A stretch of 64,000 nt of DNA, from the IMG/VR virus record IMGVR_UViG_3300023174_000079, positions 1-64,000 of that record, one strand, 5' to 3'. A program made the translations under genes and the position numbers. Numbering within the stretch: position 1 is the first letter of the stretch; each line of letters opens with the position of its first letter. Source of the DNA: a virus. The notes under the pieces were generated by a model. The model saw nothing but the letters and a program-made list of their open reading frames with translations, searched no databases and had not been told where the DNA came from. Shown piece by piece: positions 35,834 to 62,295 of this stretch.

Positions 35834-37042
35834 TTAGCCTAATAATTTCCAGCCCTGTTCTTCCATATCATTAATATCAGTTTTTTCCGGTGAATCACCG
35901 ATATCAAAAAGAATAGGCATTGGTGTACCTTCTTCCTTATGTTGTTCATTATTGTACATGGATGTAGGGTTAATAAAATATTTAATACCGTAATCCAGTG
36001 ATTTAATATGAAGCGGTCGTTTATTATCATCTAAATCAACTATCTCATAATACTTCTCTGTAATCTCATTTTCTAAAATCATTAACGACCAAATTAAACT
36101 CATGACTCGGTCATCGTGGTTACCGTTACCGGGTTTTGTCGACCAGGTACCATTAGGATAACGAACAAAGTTTTTTATCTCCATTAACGTCTTAATGTCT
36201 TTAATTCTTACAACGTTGAGTTCGTTCATCCAATAACGCATATTCATGACACCCTTATATTTTGTATTAGTGTGCGCTACAACCCCTGGTTTATTGAAGA
36301 CTTTGTCACCTGCTTTTGACCCGTATGTTACAATATTCTCATATCCAATATTATTTTTTAATTGATCAACAACCTGCGCGCCGCAATTATTTCTCTCAAT
36401 TAAAGCTGGAGGATTACCCCAATGCTGTAGGATTTCATGTAATTTTGTTGTAAAATTGTACGGGCTAATGTCATTATTATGGTAAATTGCCACTTGTTCT
36501 ATACTACGTAAATCAGTAATATCCAGAACTTGGATAACCGAAGCTGCTTCCTTTACACCTTCTGCTACGTCAACGCCAACTACATAAAGACGTTCTTTAT
36601 CTGGTTCTTTCCAGAGAAGATAATGACCATCGTCAAAAACAAATGTTGGTTCTTGGCATTCAGCCTTTAACTGATCGAAGAAAGCTTCATCAATAGCGCT
36701 TTCACCAGACTGTAAAAAGCAGTTATGTACATGTATATCGTTGGCGTAATATGTATTGCCGTTAGATACGTTTATAAGATCATAAACATCCTCGTAACCG
36801 TCAGGTTGAATATCTGTAATGAGCTCTGTCTTTTTATTCTTAAGTTCAAGTACATCACCCACTTTAAGTGTATTAGCTAAAACAGGTTCACCTTTAATAA
36901 CAAACGGGTGATCATATGTTACCCTTATCTGTTTATTTAATGTATTAAATTTTAGTACAGGTTTGTGAAGTTTACGTATACCCTCAAAAGACATGTACCC
37001 ATTTGGTGTCAAGACTTTATAATTACTTTTATTTATTTTCAT
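35834..37042 (-). CDS. 17: Terminase large subunit gp17, C-terminal half fused to split C-intein
   Basis: The 402-residue product has a 107-residue C-intein followed by a 295-residue C-extein. The extein carries the nuclease half of the terminase: VVGVDVAEGVKEA (acidic metal-binding residue), ALIERNNCGAQVVDQL and HDDRVMSLIWSL. Trans-splicing with the N-terminal gene would join FGN to CFLQSGES and restore a terminase of about 573 residues, near the 610 of T4 gp17. The ATG at 37042, which overlaps the endonuclease gene by 14 bases, is preferred over 37066 because it starts the intein fragment directly. Confidence 0.9.
   Translation of the reverse strand: MKINKSNYKVLTPNGYMSFEGIRKLHKPVLKFNTLNKQIRVTYDHPFVIKGEPVLANTLKVGDVLELKNKKTELITDIQPDGYEDVYDLINVSNGNTYYANDIHVHNCFLQSGESAIDEAFFDQLKAECQEPTFVFDDGHYLLWKEPDKERLYVVGVDVAEGVKEAASVIQVLDITDLRSIEQVAIYHNNDISPYNFTTKLHEILQHWGNPPALIERNNCGAQVVDQLKNNIGYENIVTYGSKAGDKVFNKPGVVAHTNTKYKGVMNMRYWMNELNVVRIKDIKTLMEIKNFVRYPNGTWSTKPGNGNHDDRVMSLIWSLMILENEITEKYYEIVDLDDNKRPLHIKSLDYGIKYFINPTSMYNNEQHKEEGTPMPILFDIGDSPEKTDINDMEEQGWKLLG
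36722..37042 (-). other. Split intein, C-terminal fragment (107 aa)
   Basis: Residues 1-107 of the downstream terminase gene. Visible blocks are VLTPNGYMSFEGI near the start, block B VTYDHP (T-x-x-H), VGDVLEL, block F VYDLINVSNGNTYYANDI and block G HVHN, with Cys as the +1 extein residue. Since only block A is missing, this is an atypical split with a long C-part, as in the AceL-TerL type from Antarctic lake metagenomes. Confidence 0.9.
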
Positions 37043-37976
37043 AATCCCATATAATTTTAAAATCACACTTCAAGTGATCTTGTATTTCCTTTTGTCGGTT
37101 TGTGTCTCTCTGTTTTTGAGCCTCGTATGTATGATAGTGTTCGTATACTTCATATATGGTATTCGTTTCGTGGCAGTAGCCGTCTGGATAATATCCTATA
37201 ATAGAGAAATTTCTATCAATTTTACAATTATCAATTTTTTCCTGCTCATTGAGCAATTGCGTTTCATGACGTCCTATTGCATGAAACTTTGTATCTGCAC
37301 GGGATGCACGTTTTTGGTAAGCGATTCTACCTGCGAGTTGACGTTTTCTTCTTCTTTCTAGATTCTGTTCGGGTAGGTAGCGTAGCATATAAAATTTTTG
37401 CTCCCAGTCTTCACCGTATAAATATTTAAAATGGTCTTTAGAATTTGGACCAAGAGCGCAACCACGACGCTTGCAGTAGGATTTTTCTGTAATTTTTCGC
37501 TCTGTGGGTGAAAACATAATATATGTTCCACAGCGGCAGTAGTGTTTGCTATCGAATGTAAAATTATATTTTCCAGCGATTAATAGTCTAAATGATAGTG
37601 TAAATCTAGGATGCCTGCAGTACATCTTATATTTGTCTGTATAATAAAACAGTGCTTTGTATAATTCAGGATTATCTTTAATGAGTGTGCGTCCCTTTGC
37701 CTTGCCGAGATATTTTGTATAGTGGTAATTGCTGCTGTTTAGTATGTCGTGGAGCTGTAATTGTGTATATGTTACTTCGATTGAATTTAATTTATTTTGT
37801 AACTTATGATAATACTGCTTTGTTCTCTCTGCGCAGGCTTTCAATGTGCCTGAGCCGTATGTACCGTATTTTAGATAATTGGTCTCACGTCTCTTTAGAT
37901 TAGCTGCAATTTTTTTTTCAGGATCTATGTCATAATAGGTCAAATAGTTCCTTGATGGTAATTGCTTGTTGCTCAT
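37029..37976 (-). CDS. Homing endonuclease, Vsr-like/EDxHD family, inside the split terminase gene
   Basis: A 315-residue protein encoded between the two terminase fragments, overlapping the first by 47 bases and the second by 14. The C-terminal 58 residues have the Vsr-like pattern GYYPDGYCHETNTIYEVYEHYH (Asp265, Glu276, His280/His282), then RDTNRQKEIQDHL and IIWDYE. A likely zinc ribbon lies at Cys147, Cys149, Cys168 and Cys173. Free-standing nucleases of this family were described within genes fractured by split inteins. It probably cuts intein-free terL alleles so that the whole insert is copied in. It has no intein blocks of its own. Confidence 0.8.
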   Translation of the reverse strand: MSNKQLPSRNYLTYYDIDPEKKIAANLKRRETNYLKYGTYGSGTLKACAERTKQYYHKLQNKLNSIEVTYTQLQLHDILNSSNYHYTKYLGKAKGRTLIKDNPELYKALFYYTDKYKMYCRHPRFTLSFRLLIAGKYNFTFDSKHYCRCGTYIMFSPTERKITEKSYCKRRGCALGPNSKDHFKYLYGEDWEQKFYMLRYLPEQNLERRRKRQLAGRIAYQKRASRADTKFHAIGRHETQLLNEQEKIDNCKIDRNFSIIGYYPDGYCHETNTIYEVYEHYHTYEAQKQRDTNRQKEIQDHLKCDFKIIWDYENK

Positions 37977-39897
37977 TATTATTATTTATTACATCAAGAT
38001 TACTTTCCCCGGTTACACAATTACCGAACTCCTGGTCGAATTTTTCTCTACTGCCCATCTCACGGATTGTCTTGTTCTTCCATTTTTCATCCCTACCAGG
38101 AACCTCCCACCAGTCAACACGTTCTGCCTTCCATCCATTGTGTTTTTCTGGATCTTCTTCCATAGCTCCTTCATAAAGTTCATGAAACAGATTACCGGTT
38201 CCATTAGGTGTACTAGCTACGAAAATTTTTGATTTCTTAGAAGATGAAATAATAGGGTAGACAGAGGCCCAGAATTCTTCAACAAGGTGATTATCGATAA
38301 AGGCTAACTCATCTAATAGGACAACATTTACGGAATCGCCGCGGCCGGCGTCACTGCTTGTTGTACTAATACCAATACTTGAACCATTAGCTAATGACAT
38401 CGATGTTTTACCGTACTCAACAACACCAGGCTTTAGATAATTCGGTAATTTTTCATAAGCCATCCTAACGCGCTTAAAAATATTAATAGCGGTTGATTCT
38501 TTGTTAGCAACAATAAGAACGCGTTGATCGGGTTGAAAACATACTATCCAGAGAGCGTATATAGTAAAGAGAGTAGTATTGTGTGTGGGTATTAACTGCT
38601 TACCAGCGAGATATAAATTATCTACACTATCAACAGTAATACATCTAACAGGTACCGACGGCACTTCAACAATTTGTTTTATATAATGCCATTGTGCGCG
38701 AAGATGCGACTGTACAGTAGGCGGCTTTACCTGAATTCTACTACGCTTAAACGGTAGACGACATACAAATTCTATTGGCTTAAATGTAACGATAGCGGAG
38801 ATATTACATTCAACGCCTCTCAATTTAGGTACATACTCTTTATATGTAACTTTATATCCAAGACTAGTTATGAGCTCTTTAACCTGCTTGGCTAATTCTA
38901 AATTTGTATTATAAAAACATGCATTTCCTCTATCATTAATATACCCATCACTATCAATAAGCCCTTGTAGTAGAGCGAGTCGCTGCTGTCTGCTTGCAAG
39001 CATGTACTCATTAGGAATATGCTTATTGTTTTTTAGGTTATTGTTTTTGATTAATCCGGATAAACTTTCTGTGTGTAAATTTTTTGTTGATGTTATTCTC
39101 AACGTATATACCTCTTTCTTATATTCATGTAAAATTAATTTGTCGAATTGTTTTTGCTGTGTATTAAGAATATCTATAATTTCGTGTATATCTCGTCTAC
39201 CTACAGTTATAGTACCACTAGCACTCGCTCCGTCCCCTAGCCACAATCCAAGCACATAAGGCTCAATAGGTAGTTCCTTTTCAATTCCCGTTACTCCGTT
39301 TATACATACAGGTATTCTATGATTAGGTTCTTTGCAGTATGGCGCGTATAATGTATCGACAATCTGCTGCGTAGTTTTTACTGTACCACTTGTCTTTCTT
39401 TCATTTCTCGATTCTGTAAACCATAGATGATCTGCATCGGCAATAATTTCCTCACCATTATCAAATATTACTTTATAACATTTACGGTTATCAAGGGTCT
39501 CGTGGGCATGCACGATGTTGCAAGGTTCACCATCAGCTCCGTATACTCGATCGCCTTTCTTAAGCTCACCCATTGTTGACCACCCGGATGTGGTTAATAT
39601 CGGCGTATCTAGTGCAAGTGCCTTACCACTCTGTCTACTTGATAACATACATACAAATCGATTATCACGGAGCGACCGAAGGATGCGTTTTTGATAGAGA
39701 TGGAGTTGTATTTTTATCTTACCTTCATCAAGATTTGTAATATAAAAGAAATTTTCAGCAAAATATAAAATATTTTTTTTACATTTTTCTATATCCTTTA
39801 TCCACTCTGGATTCGAGCTATAGTCAAACAAAGCATCCGGTGTCGGTAAGCTTTCATTACCTAGATAAAACTGCTGTTTCTCTTTTTTAGTAGCCAT
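37930..39897 (-). CDS. 17: Terminase large subunit gp17, N-terminal half with internal class 3 intein and split N-intein
   Basis: The 655-residue product has, in order, extein 1-92 ending in SSRQSGK, a 348-residue intein (93-440), extein 441-626 and a 29-residue N-intein (627-655). Removing the first intein restores the Walker A SRQSGKTTL. The second extein has Walker B VVLLDELAF and motif III STPNGTG of the packaging ATPase. Thus the ATPase is encoded here and the nuclease in the downstream fragment. Both cis-splicing and trans-splicing are needed to make a whole DNA-packaging motor. Confidence 0.92.
   Translation of the reverse strand: MATKKEKQQFYLGNESLPTPDALFDYSSNPEWIKDIEKCKKNILYFAENFFYITNLDEGKIKIQLHLYQKRILRSLRDNRFVCMLSSRQSGKALALDTPILTTSGWSTMGELKKGDRVYGADGEPCNIVHAHETLDNRKCYKVIFDNGEEIIADADHLWFTESRNERKTSGTVKTTQQIVDTLYAPYCKEPNHRIPVCINGVTGIEKELPIEPYVLGLWLGDGASASGTITVGRRDIHEIIDILNTQQKQFDKLILHEYKKEVYTLRITSTKNLHTESLSGLIKNNNLKNNKHIPNEYMLASRQQRLALLQGLIDSDGYINDRGNACFYNTNLELAKQVKELITSLGYKVTYKEYVPKLRGVECNISAIVTFKPIEFVCRLPFKRSRIQVKPPTVQSHLRAQWHYIKQIVEVPSVPVRCITVDSVDNLYLAGKQLIPTHNTTLFTIYALWIVCFQPDQRVLIVANKESTAINIFKRVRMAYEKLPNYLKPGVVEYGKTSMSLANGSSIGISTTSSDAGRGDSVNVVLLDELAFIDNHLVEEFWASVYPIISSSKKSKIFVASTPNGTGNLFHELYEGAMEEDPEKHNGWKAERVDWWEVPGRDEKWKNKTIREMGSREKFDQEFGNCVTGESNLDVINNNNEQQAITIKELFDLL
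37933..38019 (-). other. Split intein, N-terminal fragment (29 aa)
   Basis: The last 29 residues before the stop, CVTGESNLDVINNNNEQQAI then TIKELFDLL. Cys1 follows FGN of the terminase and only block A is present. Its short length marks an atypically split intein. Confidence 0.9.
38578..39621 (-). other. Class 3 intein with LAGLIDADG endonuclease in terminase Walker A
   Basis: 348 residues between SGK and TTL of the P-loop. It starts with Ala (ALALDTPILTTSGW) instead of Cys/Ser and ends THN. Trp67 (DADHLW, block B), Cys327 (VRCITVD, block F) and Thr346 (PTHN, block G) form the WCT triad of class 3 inteins. A homing endonuclease domain lies between, with LAGLIDADG motifs VLGLWLGDG (Asp130) and LLQGLIDSDG (Asp225). 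No frameshift or missing catalytic residue is seen, so splicing and cleavage should both work. Confidence 0.92.
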
Positions 39898-59428: not shown

Positions 59429-61240
59429 TTATATGGCAGTGTCTACGTAATCAACGCGTTTTGTAATACCATTACTCTTTTCCAGGAAAATAACATCACC
59501 GGTAGCTGCTTTCACGCTTTCTTTACGGTGACTGATAACCATGATGCTTTCGTTATATTTTTCAACACGCTCCTTCAGTACATTAATAACAAGTTCGATA
59601 CCACGAGCATCTAAACTCGAATCAAATAGTTCGTCGTAAATACTAAAGTTAAAACATACATCACCCTGTAATCTACGCATATCCATGAATGTAAAGAGAC
59701 AAGCAAGGTCCATATTCTTTCTCTCAGCTCCGCTAAAATTAAAATACGAACGCTGTGCTCCTTTAATATCAACGATTTCCTCTTCAAAATATTCATTAAA
59801 CGTACAAATACAGTTGGCGTCCATTTTCTGAAGATAGTAAGCAAGTTTGCTATTAAACAATTGAAGTATTTTCTTAACAATATATGACTTTACACCTTCC
59901 TCTGAGACAACAAATTTTACAACATCTAATACGTTTGTTGTTTCTTTAATTGTTTCAAGACCAGTTGTCAATCTTGTAAGCTCTTGCTGCTTTTCATCGA
60001 TTAATGTATCAAACTGCGTTGACGCTTGCTCGAGATCTTTTAAATCCTGATCAAGCATTGTTTGCCATTCATTTAATTGAATTAAACGTGCTTGTCGATT
60101 TTGTTGATCTTTTATTTCGAGATTATATGCATGAATACTATTTTCTAATGTACTGATCTTAGTGTTGACATCATTACGCTTTAAAACAAGTGTCGACTCA
60201 ATATCAGTCTGGTCATTAATAATTTGTTTATGATCTTCAATGTCGTTAGTAAGCTTCTGCTTTTCCTTCTTAATATGGTCCTTATCAGTTTCTTTGATCG
60301 AGCGTAAACATGTGGGGCATTTATCTTTATCTGTACCTACGGCATTTATTTGTTTTTGAATTTGTGTTATCAATGTTTGACTCTCACTTCTTGTGTGTCT
60401 ACAAGCTTGTATCTTATCATCGACTTTAGTATTAGCATCTTTGAGCTTGGTGATAGCAGCATTAATATTATCAATACTTTTTTCTTTAAAAGAATTTATT
60501 ATTTCTGTCACTTCAACAATTTCTTTAGCATTATTAATCTTTCGTTGTGTGTACTTTTCATGCTTTTGCTTTCGTTCATCAAGAGTATTGTCTCGCTGAC
60601 GAATATAGCTTCTAAGAACCTTATCTACTTCCTCATACCTAGTACCTTCAATATCAAGAGATTTTTTATTTTCTGTTACATCGGCTTTTAACAAGGTCGA
60701 CATATTACTGAATACACCGAGATTAAAAATATCTTCAATAAATTTTCTCTTTTCTTGTTTCTTTTTCGCCATAAACGGAGTAGTGTTGTTTATGGTCATA
60801 ATCACACAATTCTGAAATATTTCAGGCGTGCAATTAAACTTCTTCATAATGAAGTTATTTGTATTTGAAATACTATCTCTTGTTTTATCCTCATCGTTAA
60901 TATAGATAAAGCATTTTGAGGGCTCTAATGTACGTACAATTTTAATATTTTCAATGGTATCAAATTGATTAATTGTTGCTTCTAATATAACTTCGCAGTT
61001 TTTCTTGTTGATGCTATTAACAATAAATTCTTTTTTAAGATCTCTAAGTGTTTCACCAAATACAGCAAAGTTGATAGCATCAGCTATTGTCGATTTACCG
61101 ACACCATTTTGTCGATCCTCCTTGTCTTTATTGATACCTGTAATAATATGGAGACCACGTTTAAAGTCTACAGTAACAGGGGCATTACCGACGGAGAGAA
61201 AATTCTTTATCGTTATATTTTTGAAATTAATTTGTTTCAT
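59429..61240 (-). CDS. 46: Recombination nuclease subunit gp46 (SbcC/Rad50-like)
   Basis: This 603-residue ATPase pairs with gp47 to resect DNA ends. It has a split Walker A (GINKDKEDRQNGVGKST, 35-51), long coiled coils with a zinc-hook CPTC (near residue 307), the ABC signature NFSGAERKNMDLACLF and Walker B FSIYDELFDSSLD. Length equals that of T4 gp46 (560) plus a slightly longer coil. It overlaps gp47 by four bases (ATGA). Confidence 0.95.
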   Translation of the reverse strand: MKQINFKNITIKNFLSVGNAPVTVDFKRGLHIITGINKDKEDRQNGVGKSTIADAINFAVFGETLRDLKKEFIVNSINKKNCEVILEATINQFDTIENIKIVRTLEPSKCFIYINDEDKTRDSISNTNNFIMKKFNCTPEIFQNCVIMTINNTTPFMAKKKQEKRKFIEDIFNLGVFSNMSTLLKADVTENKKSLDIEGTRYEEVDKVLRSYIRQRDNTLDERKQKHEKYTQRKINNAKEIVEVTEIINSFKEKSIDNINAAITKLKDANTKVDDKIQACRHTRSESQTLITQIQKQINAVGTDKDKCPTCLRSIKETDKDHIKKEKQKLTNDIEDHKQIINDQTDIESTLVLKRNDVNTKISTLENSIHAYNLEIKDQQNRQARLIQLNEWQTMLDQDLKDLEQASTQFDTLIDEKQQELTRLTTGLETIKETTNVLDVVKFVVSEEGVKSYIVKKILQLFNSKLAYYLQKMDANCICTFNEYFEEEIVDIKGAQRSYFNFSGAERKNMDLACLFTFMDMRRLQGDVCFNFSIYDELFDSSLDARGIELVINVLKERVEKYNESIMVISHRKESVKAATGDVIFLEKSNGITKRVDYVDTAI

Positions 61241-62295
61241 ATTTCGCTTGCGCGTTTATATAAATCAGCACAATACTTGATTATATTCTCTTTGTTGTCA
61301 ATATCTAGCACGTTAATAAATTCCTCAATAGTTGCCTGCATATTCACCCCAGTTGATTCATAACCCTTATCGTCAATATTGTAATTATTTTCCGTATAGG
61401 TATAATCTGTAGTAAATGCTAATGGCTTATAGACAGAAAACTTTTGAATTAAAGCGTCAATAGCATCACTATTTGCTTTCTTATCGACAACAAATTTAAC
61501 AAAATTACCGTTAACCATTTCATTAATATCTGCGCCAGTCAGCGACTTAGCGTTCGTCAATTCAGTAAGTGATATCTTTCTGTGCTTTGGTGATATATTA
61601 TTTTCAAAGAAATTATAATTTAGTGTTTCAAGGTCGAGAGTATAATACCCTTTAATACCACCTAGGTCGCCAAAATCCATCTCAAACGGATTACCGACAT
61701 ATACGATTGTACCGTCATTATATACTCTTTCGTCTCTAAGATGGAAGTGACCTGACATCACAAGCTTTGCTTTAGTAAGCAGATCACGAGTCTTAGTACC
61801 GTGATCACATGTCTTAAAGCTGTTCATTTTAAAGCTCTCAATTTCTAAATGCCCAAAAATAGCATCAGATTTTGGTAAATCTGAAATATCGCCTCCCCAG
61901 GGAATAAATGTAAACGTCTTGCCAAAGAGAGTACTCGTTGTTGTTTCACTAATAACAGTTAAATTTTTTCTACCACTAAGAATGGATAATGAATTAACGT
62001 CGGAACGATCCTTATAATAGGCGTCGTGGTTACCGACGATCATAACTACATTAAACTCACTTAGCTTATCTAAAACTAGACTTGCAACATGTAATGTAGA
62101 AACGGATATGTCACTTCTATGATGATAGAAGTCACCAAGAAATAAGACATCTCTAATATCTTGCTTTTTAAGCTCCGATACAAACCAATCACACCATTCT
62201 AGAGCAACTTGATGCCATGTAGTAGAATCAAGATGTACTCCTAAATGTAGATCGGAAAATATAGCTACTTTTGATTTGTTTAAAAATAAATCCAC
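61237..62295 (-). CDS. 47: Recombination nuclease subunit gp47 (SbcD/Mre11-like)
   Basis: The 352-residue calcineurin-like phosphoesterase has the five metal motifs: FSDLHLG (Asp15, His17), FLGDFYHHR, VGNHDAYY, FGHLE and MSGHFHLR. It should be the nuclease of the gp46/47 complex. It starts with GTG two bases after the gp55 stop. Length is near the 339 of T4 gp47. Confidence 0.95.
   Translation of the reverse strand: MDLFLNKSKVAIFSDLHLGVHLDSTTWHQVALEWCDWFVSELKKQDIRDVLFLGDFYHHRSDISVSTLHVASLVLDKLSEFNVVMIVGNHDAYYKDRSDVNSLSILSGRKNLTVISETTTSTLFGKTFTFIPWGGDISDLPKSDAIFGHLEIESFKMNSFKTCDHGTKTRDLLTKAKLVMSGHFHLRDERVYNDGTIVYVGNPFEMDFGDLGGIKGYYTLDLETLNYNFFENNISPKHRKISLTELTNAKSLTGADINEMVNGNFVKFVVDKKANSDAIDALIQKFSVYKPLAFTTDYTYTENNYNIDDKGYESTGVNMQATIEEFINVLDIDNKENIIKYCADLYKRASEI

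What the first reader, a model, noticed from the sequence alone, without database searches (positions are those of the whole stretch)
35834..39897. Terminase gene fractured by an atypically split intein with an EDxHD endonuclease gene in the break
The upstream terminase gene ends in a 29-residue N-intein (only block A, Cys1 after FGN). The downstream gene starts with a 107-residue C-intein (blocks B, F, G, then HN and Cys+1). Between them lies a separate gene for a Vsr-like/EDxHD nuclease that overlaps both (47 and 14 bases). Removing the intein pieces joins FGN to CFLQSGES and gives a normal-length terminase. Short-N/long-C terminase inteins of this type (AceL-TerL) and fractured genes with EDxHD nucleases are known mainly from metagenomes. 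A full phage context with the nuclease still in place is valuable, and the fragment could be a new fast-splicing intein.
Basis: partly seen in the sequence, partly recalled or inferred. Interest (0 to 1): 0.93.

Follow-up and report, generated by a model that had tools for sequence, protein, structure and literature searches.

The report
Phage packaging gene broken by inteins
A virus of bacteria makes its DNA-packaging motor as two separate proteins that a split protein-splicing element (an intein) should stitch together, with a DNA-cutting gene in the gap that probably copies the whole element into relatives that lack it; the arrangement is real and mobile but belongs to a known kind.

Summary
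Both halves match the two chains of Cat, the consensus of the AceL/GOS-TerL inteins. Missed: a second, contiguous 348-residue LAGLIDADG intein in the Walker A motif; only its removal too gives a normal 573-residue TerL.

Relatives give independent support. Near relatives (exteins 84-98% alike) lack the element and read EFGN|TFLQSGES at the exact site. About ten other contigs carry the same three-gene layout; others have a decayed nuclease or none. N-intein, nuclease and C-intein are under strong purifying selection (dN/dS 0.02-0.08 against L090). The element is sister to one in a distantly related TerL, while the window's TerL groups with empty ones (AU p = 2.6e-5): it moves. The nuclease shows the E-D-H-D order of EDxHD/Vsr enzymes, but sequence did not tie it to I-Bth0305I.

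Cultured phages already show split terminases, and this window is itself metagenomic. New member of a known kind. Splicing and cleavage remain untested.

The parts
39622..39897 (-). TerL extein 1 (92 aa), up to Walker A ...SSRQSGK
   Evidence: Contiguous match to intein-free relatives L010-L013
38578..39621 (-). Contiguous intein in Walker A (348 aa): Ala1, LAGLIDADG homing endonuclease, ends PTHN, +1 Thr; W...C...T residues of class 3 inteins visible in the sequence
   Evidence: Pfam LAGLIDADG_3 6.7e-9 and Hom_end 1e-4; PDB replicative-helicase inteins 6bs8/6rix E 6e-25 to 2.5e-23; same intein 79% in L015
38020..38577 (-). TerL extein 2 (186 aa), rest of the ATPase domain, ends FDQEFGN
   Evidence: Terminase_6N E 1.5e-11; 94-98% identical to intein-free L010-L013
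37930..38019 (-). N-intein, 29 aa, Cys1 (CVTGESNLDVINNNNEQQAITIKELFDLL) plus stop
   Evidence: 90% identical in L090; N-intein profile hits CatN 6dsl_A E 3.2e-5
37029..37976 (-). Free-standing Vsr/EDxHD-like nuclease, 315 aa: N-terminal helical part, Cys4 (CxC...C....C) region, C-terminal nuclease with E238-D265-H282-D291
   Evidence: Invariant residues over 19 relatives; AF2 pLDDT 87.8; best PDB fold match Vsr 1vsr, not significant; dN/dS 0.05 against L090
36722..37042 (-). C-intein, 107 aa, with block B TYDH and C-terminal HVHN
   Evidence: CatC 6dsl_B E 5.4e-14; catalytic His and Asn conserved across 13 C-inteins; dN/dS 0.02 against L090
35834..36721 (-). TerL extein 3 (295 aa, starts CFLQSGES), nuclease domain, plus stop
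   Evidence: Terminase_6C E 1.1e-5; 84-89% identical to intein-free L010, L013, L037
36719..36724 (-). C-terminal splice junction Asn|Cys+1; the empty site in nearest relatives reads EFGN|TFLQSGES

Best explanation
The terL gene of a T4-like phage has been invaded by a mobile atypically split intein of the AceL/GOS-TerL (Cat) kind. The ATPase half is made with a 29-residue N-intein tail and the nuclease half with a 107-residue C-intein head. The two halves bind, fold into one HINT domain and trans-splice by the class 1 route (Cys1, Cys+1, His-Asn), joining EFGN to CFLQSGES. A second intein in Walker A must also splice out, in cis, to give the 573-residue terminase. The overlapping gene in the break encodes a Vsr/EDxHD-like homing endonuclease. 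It probably cuts terL copies that lack the element, at or near EFGN|TFLQ, so that repair copies N-intein, nuclease and C-intein as one unit. Shown by sequence: the anatomy, homology of both intein halves to Cat, the empty site, purifying selection on all three parts, conflict between element and host-gene trees, and decayed or nuclease-free versions. Inferred: trans-splicing, DNA cutting and the cut position.
For: Anatomy. Both halves match the two chains of Cat 6dsl. Exact empty site in L010-L013 and L037. Same layout in L090, L091, L096-L100, L102, L103, L045 and L053. Decayed nuclease in L114-L116, none in L055 and cultured EniLVp02. dN/dS of N-intein 0.08, nuclease 0.05, C-intein 0.02 against L090. 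Extein tree places the window among empty relatives (SH-aLRT 99; 100/100) while its element is sister to that of L090 (97/97); AU rejects window plus L090 as one host clade, p 2.6e-5. Distances are element 0.26 against extein 0.73; in the pair L045/L053, whose exteins also pair, they are 0.18 and 0.185. Nuclease-domain relatives sit next to homing-type DNA-binding parts. No Rfam intron in the window.
Against: No activity data. Shine-Dalgarno-like sites upstream of the nuclease and C-fragment starts are weak. Nuclease-to-Vsr fold similarity is not significant by E-value. The extein backbone is poorly resolved where L090 and L091 join, so donor and direction are unknown, and synonymous sites are near saturation, so the transfer is not recent.
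Confidence: 0.85

Rival explanations
1. The two TerL halves work as a gene in pieces: ATPase and nuclease domains assemble without covalent joining and the intein remnants are dead.
For: The break falls between the Pfam ATPase (Terminase_6N) and nuclease (Terminase_6C) domains.
Against: Cys1, block B His, C-terminal His-Asn and Cys+1 are all present and conserved; dN/dS of the intein parts is 0.02-0.08, which dead remnants would not show.
Confidence: 0.04
2. The middle segment is an RNA intron carrying a homing endonuclease and the transcript is spliced.
For: ICP1 terL and other phage genes are spliced this way (PMC10448857).
Against: No group I or II intron matched by Rfam anywhere in the window; the flanking 29 and 107 residues are both homologous to the solved split intein Cat and selected as protein.
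Confidence: 0.02
3. The nuclease no longer homes but serves packaging or DNA repair, with the intein kept passively.
For: HNH nucleases beside terminases can help packaging (discussed in PMC10448857); the nuclease is intact and selected.
Against: Several split TerLs lack it (L055, EniLVp02) or carry a GIY-YIG or decayed one instead; near relatives without the element keep an uninterrupted terL with no nuclease in it.
Confidence: 0.08
4. The three frames are a sequencing or assembly artefact of one reading frame.
For: The record is metagenomic.
Against: Independent contigs L090, L091, L096, L097, L099, L102, L103, L045 and L053 show the same three frames.
Confidence: 0.01

Closest known systems
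AceL-TerL / GOS-TerL / Cat atypically split TerL inteins
   Same: Short N-intein and about 104-115-residue C-intein in phage TerL (25/104, 37/115, 30/104 in PMC11766414; here 29/107); both halves match CatN and CatC; Cys1/Cys+1 as in AceL
   Different: Element still carries its nuclease gene; its insertion point (site A, N|CF) is one codon downstream of the other TerL lineage compared here (site B, |CxF), and the nearest empty gene has Thr, not Cys, at +1
Fractured genes with EDxHD homing endonucleases (Dassa et al. 2009, 10.1093/nar/gkp095; not held, known from citations and memory)
   Same: Gene broken by a split intein with a free-standing Vsr-like nuclease gene in the break
   Different: This nuclease has a Cys4 zinc-ribbon-like middle part and a YEVYExxH motif; it looks closer to the CapR-plus-EDxHD/Vsr-like outgroup described in PMC12350094
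Vibrio phage Va1 terminase (MK387337, cultured)
   Same: Split TerL intein with a nuclease whose N-terminal/Cys4 part is homologous (hhalign 96.5%, E 8.9e-10)
   Different: Nuclease is fused in frame to the C-intein; insertion site one codon upstream
Providencia phage PSTRCR_127 and Serratia phage 92A1 terL (cultured)
   Same: Three-gene layout: TerL-N with N-intein, separate nuclease-like gene in the break, C-intein with TerL-C
   Different: The middle gene is GIY-YIG-like (read from its sequence), and the insertion site is further upstream (EH|C)
Pseudomonas phage MIJ3 split DNA polymerase B (PMC6892783)
   Same: Cultured phage gene split by an intein with a free-standing homing endonuclease between
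   Different: Other host gene, HNH nuclease

Membership tests
AceL/GOS/Cat-type atypically split TerL intein (class 1) | Sequence homology of both halves to the Cat consensus | tested here: met
   CatC 6dsl_B E 5.4e-14 for the window alone; CatN 6dsl_A E 3.2e-5 with the N-intein profile; the single 29-mer alone found nothing
AceL/GOS/Cat-type atypically split TerL intein (class 1) | Split after block A: short N-half, about 100-residue C-half, on separate genes | tested here: met
   29 and 107 residues in separate ORFs
AceL/GOS/Cat-type atypically split TerL intein (class 1) | Catalytic residues Cys/Ser1, block B His, C-terminal His-Asn, Cys+1 | tested here: met
   Sequence and alignments A2 and A5
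AceL/GOS/Cat-type atypically split TerL intein (class 1) | Protein trans-splicing | not testable with these tools
   Needs expression and mass spectrometry
EDxHD homing endonuclease (I-Bth0305I / Vsr-like) | Ordered catalytic E, D, H, D in a C-terminal nuclease domain | tested here: met
   E238, D265, H282, D291 invariant in 19 sequences; which of them are catalytic is inferred
EDxHD homing endonuclease (I-Bth0305I / Vsr-like) | Vsr-like fold / similarity to I-Bth0305I (3r3p) | tested here: inconclusive
   1vsr best PDB match, prob 0.85 but E 0.32; 3r3p_B TM (target) 0.50, E 2.6
EDxHD homing endonuclease (I-Bth0305I / Vsr-like) | Detectable sequence homology to the solved member | tested here: not met
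   No PDB match with profiles A1 and A4; direct hhalign 0.1%. The 3r3p stretch used covers only part of the domain, so this test is weak
Homing endonuclease (any family) | Interrupts a gene of which nearby relatives have an uninterrupted copy at the exact site | tested here: met
   L010-L013, L037
Homing endonuclease (any family) | Site-specific cutting of the empty allele | not testable with these tools
   Needs purified protein
Group I/II intron | Intron RNA structure around the break | tested here: not met
   Rfam gathering thresholds: no match in the window

The most novel reading that the evidence does not exclude
Two lineages of split TerL intein plus Vsr-like nuclease occupy insertion points one codon (3 bp) apart in the same gene, and the insertion codon is inherited with the element (two clades, 100/99 support). 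The nuclease lineage would thus set the splice codon even where, as in the window's nearest relatives, the native +1 residue is Thr and must become Cys on homing. Such serial homing can cut TerL into four polypeptides, one contributing only 11 residues (related contigs).
Probability: 0.5. Interest if true: 0.7.

Novelty: new member of a known kind. Interest (0 to 1): 0.5.

Why it matters
The set gives apparent stages of a homing cycle in one gene (empty, occupied with intact nuclease, nuclease decayed, nuclease lost), with an exact empty allele to use as target. It supplies about ten new natural pairs of short N-inteins and long C-inteins with native exteins for protein labelling work. It also gives a concrete system to test how a nuclease with a Vsr-like domain recognises its site when a sister lineage uses a point 3 bp away.

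Tried and rejected
Near-identity search of phage records with 20 kb: no match, so the phage has no close cultured relative there. Nuclease profile in bacterial and archaeal genomes: no relative. Second copies of nuclease or C-intein in the 119 kb record: none; the Pfam intein model rings only at the Walker A intein. RNA intron: rejected. Single N-intein against PDB: nothing; the profile of 13 worked. A degenerate search with the 13 C-inteins could not be run because no block was conserved enough. Dassa 2009 and the I-Bth0305I paper are not held. AceL-TerL letters (recalled from memory) were not found in held papers, so membership was tested through the Cat structure instead. In the 75-row tree L096 and L114 join on long branches and were not relied on.

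Full report
What was checked. The window is the first 64 kb of an IMG/VR virus record of 118,973 bases. The surrounding genes are those of a T4-like myovirus: tail tube and tail sheath downstream of terL, and elsewhere DNA polymerase B, a RecA-like protein, a gp32-like protein and a DnaB-like helicase. No phage record is close at DNA level.

Anatomy. On the minus strand the N-fragment (39897-37930) ends in CVTGESNLDVINNNNEQQAITIKELFDLL, the nuclease ORF runs 37976-37029, and the C-fragment starts at 37042 with 107 intein residues ending in HVHN before CFLQSGES. It missed that the N-fragment also carries a 348-residue contiguous intein in Walker A (39621-38578) with a LAGLIDADG domain, matching solved replicative-helicase inteins (6bs8, 6rix). 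It begins with Ala, not Cys, and has W (DHLW), C (VRCITVD) and T (PTHN) where class 3 inteins carry their WCT triplet (motif described in PMC5050341; the position match was read by eye). The three exteins sum to 573 residues. The split falls between the Terminase_6N and Terminase_6C domains.

Intein identity. A profile of 13 C-inteins finds CatC (6dsl_B) first, E 2.5e-27; the window C-intein alone finds it at 5.4e-14; the N-intein profile finds CatN (6dsl_A) at 3.2e-5. Cat was designed from GOS-TerL and AceL-TerL (PMC11766414). The catalytic His, His-Asn and Cys residues are present and conserved.

Empty site and mobility. Five relatives (L010-L013, L037; exteins 84-98% alike) have an uninterrupted ...FDQEFGN-TFLQSGES.... 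Over that stretch the window protein differs only in having Cys for Thr at +1. L090 carries an N-intein 90%, nuclease 78% and C-intein 84% identical to the window's, in a TerL whose exteins are only 57-76% identical. In the element tree the window and L090 are sisters (97/97). In the extein tree the window sits with empty L010 and L013 (100/100), and forcing window plus L090 together is rejected (AU p 2.6e-5). Element distance is 0.26 against extein distance 0.73; in L045/L053, whose exteins also pair, the two are 0.18 and 0.185. The element therefore moves between terL genes. Synonymous sites are near saturation, so this is not recent.

Stages. The same three-gene layout is in L090, L091, L096, L097, L098, L099, L100, L102, L103, L045 and L053 (L100-L102 are near copies of one another, L104 and L105 are L053 and L045 again). 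L114-L116 keep the split intein with an 86-residue nuclease remnant that lacks much of the domain. L055 and cultured EniLVp02 have the split intein with no nuclease. This is what a homing cycle predicts.

Two sites. Elements of the window, L090, L091, L096 and L097 lie at N|CF (site A); those of L099, L102, L103, L053 and L045 one codon upstream at |CxF (site B). The two sets are two clades with 100/99 support. The sample is small (five each), and the placing of the N-junction in L103, L045 and L053 (Ser1 reading) was made by eye from the sequence.

Nuclease. 315 residues; AF2 mean pLDDT 87.8, pTM 0.63. E238, D265, E276, E279, H282 and D291 are invariant in 19 relatives, and C147, C149, C168 and C173 in the 11 TerL-linked ones. 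Vsr (1vsr) is the top PDB fold match, but E 0.32; I-Bth0305I is at E 2.6. The best viral fold match, A0A410T6L6 (761 aa, E 6.9e-6, unnamed), has the length of the Va1 fused protein. The N-terminal and Cys4 part of the Va1 nuclease is homologous. In further contigs (L092, L106-L113) the same C-terminal domain sits next to other DNA-binding parts of homing type. PMC12350094 describes a large group with CapR-like domains followed by an EDxHD/Vsr-like domain; this nuclease fits that description, but I did not test it against their profiles. I therefore call it Vsr/EDxHD-like rather than a tested member of the I-Bth0305I family.

What is known. Split TerL inteins occur in cultured phages: PX29 (annotated N-intein, GIY-YIG and C-intein), PSTRCR_127 and 92A1 (three genes), VP-1, 1.244.A, Va1, EniLVp02. 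A free-standing nuclease in a split-intein gene is published for MIJ3 PolB (PMC6892783). The kind is known; this member, its empty site and the site-shift pattern are new as far as the searches here show.

Limits. No splicing or cutting has been shown. 'Fast-splicing' is unsupported. The phage's host is unknown. The literature held here is open-access only, so novelty beyond it could not be checked.

Noticed in passing
L103:366-6243 (also L118:1-4247, L119:2416-8127, L122): TerL carries two split inteins 11 codons apart around Walker B: a 155-residue polypeptide is C-intein + CLVIDEMAFIE + N-intein. L103 has three split inteins with three different nuclease genes in the breaks (GIY-YIG, TnsA-like, Vsr-like), so TerL would be joined from four polypeptides; L118 adds the Walker A intein. 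Joined exteins match intact relatives. More surprising than the window itself.
   Followed up: partly
L132:1035-6284 (Campylobacter phage vB_CcoM-IBB_35, HM246721): In a cultured phage, terL reads as a Walker A intein plus two split inteins around an 8-residue Walker B extein (NHN|CNIIVVDE|CLEYDT), with GIY-YIG-like and MobE-like nucleases. The published reading was one intein and one intron (PMC3322345).
   Followed up: partly
window 38578-39621 (-): Contiguous 348-residue LAGLIDADG intein in TerL Walker A with class 3 features (Ala1, W-C-T), related to replicative-helicase inteins; present in L015, L020, L022, L028, L053, absent from L010-L013.
   Followed up: yes
L079:3523-6488, L121, L123-L126: Another split intein in TerL between SVN and CLVIDEMAF with a GIY-YIG nuclease gene in the break.
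   Followed up: partly
L053, L045, L103, L120: N-intein reads as Ser1 (QEFN|SCSAETL...), with Cys+1, the combination reported for GOS-TerL in PMC11766414.
   Followed up: no
L114:4192-5192 and L116: TerL with two split inteins; the nuclease of the terminal one is reduced to an 86-residue remnant.
   Followed up: partly
window 59429-61240 and 61237-62295 (-): Rad50/SbcC-like protein with zinc-hook motif next to a calcineurin-like phosphoesterase, probably a T4 gp46/gp47-type pair.
   Followed up: no
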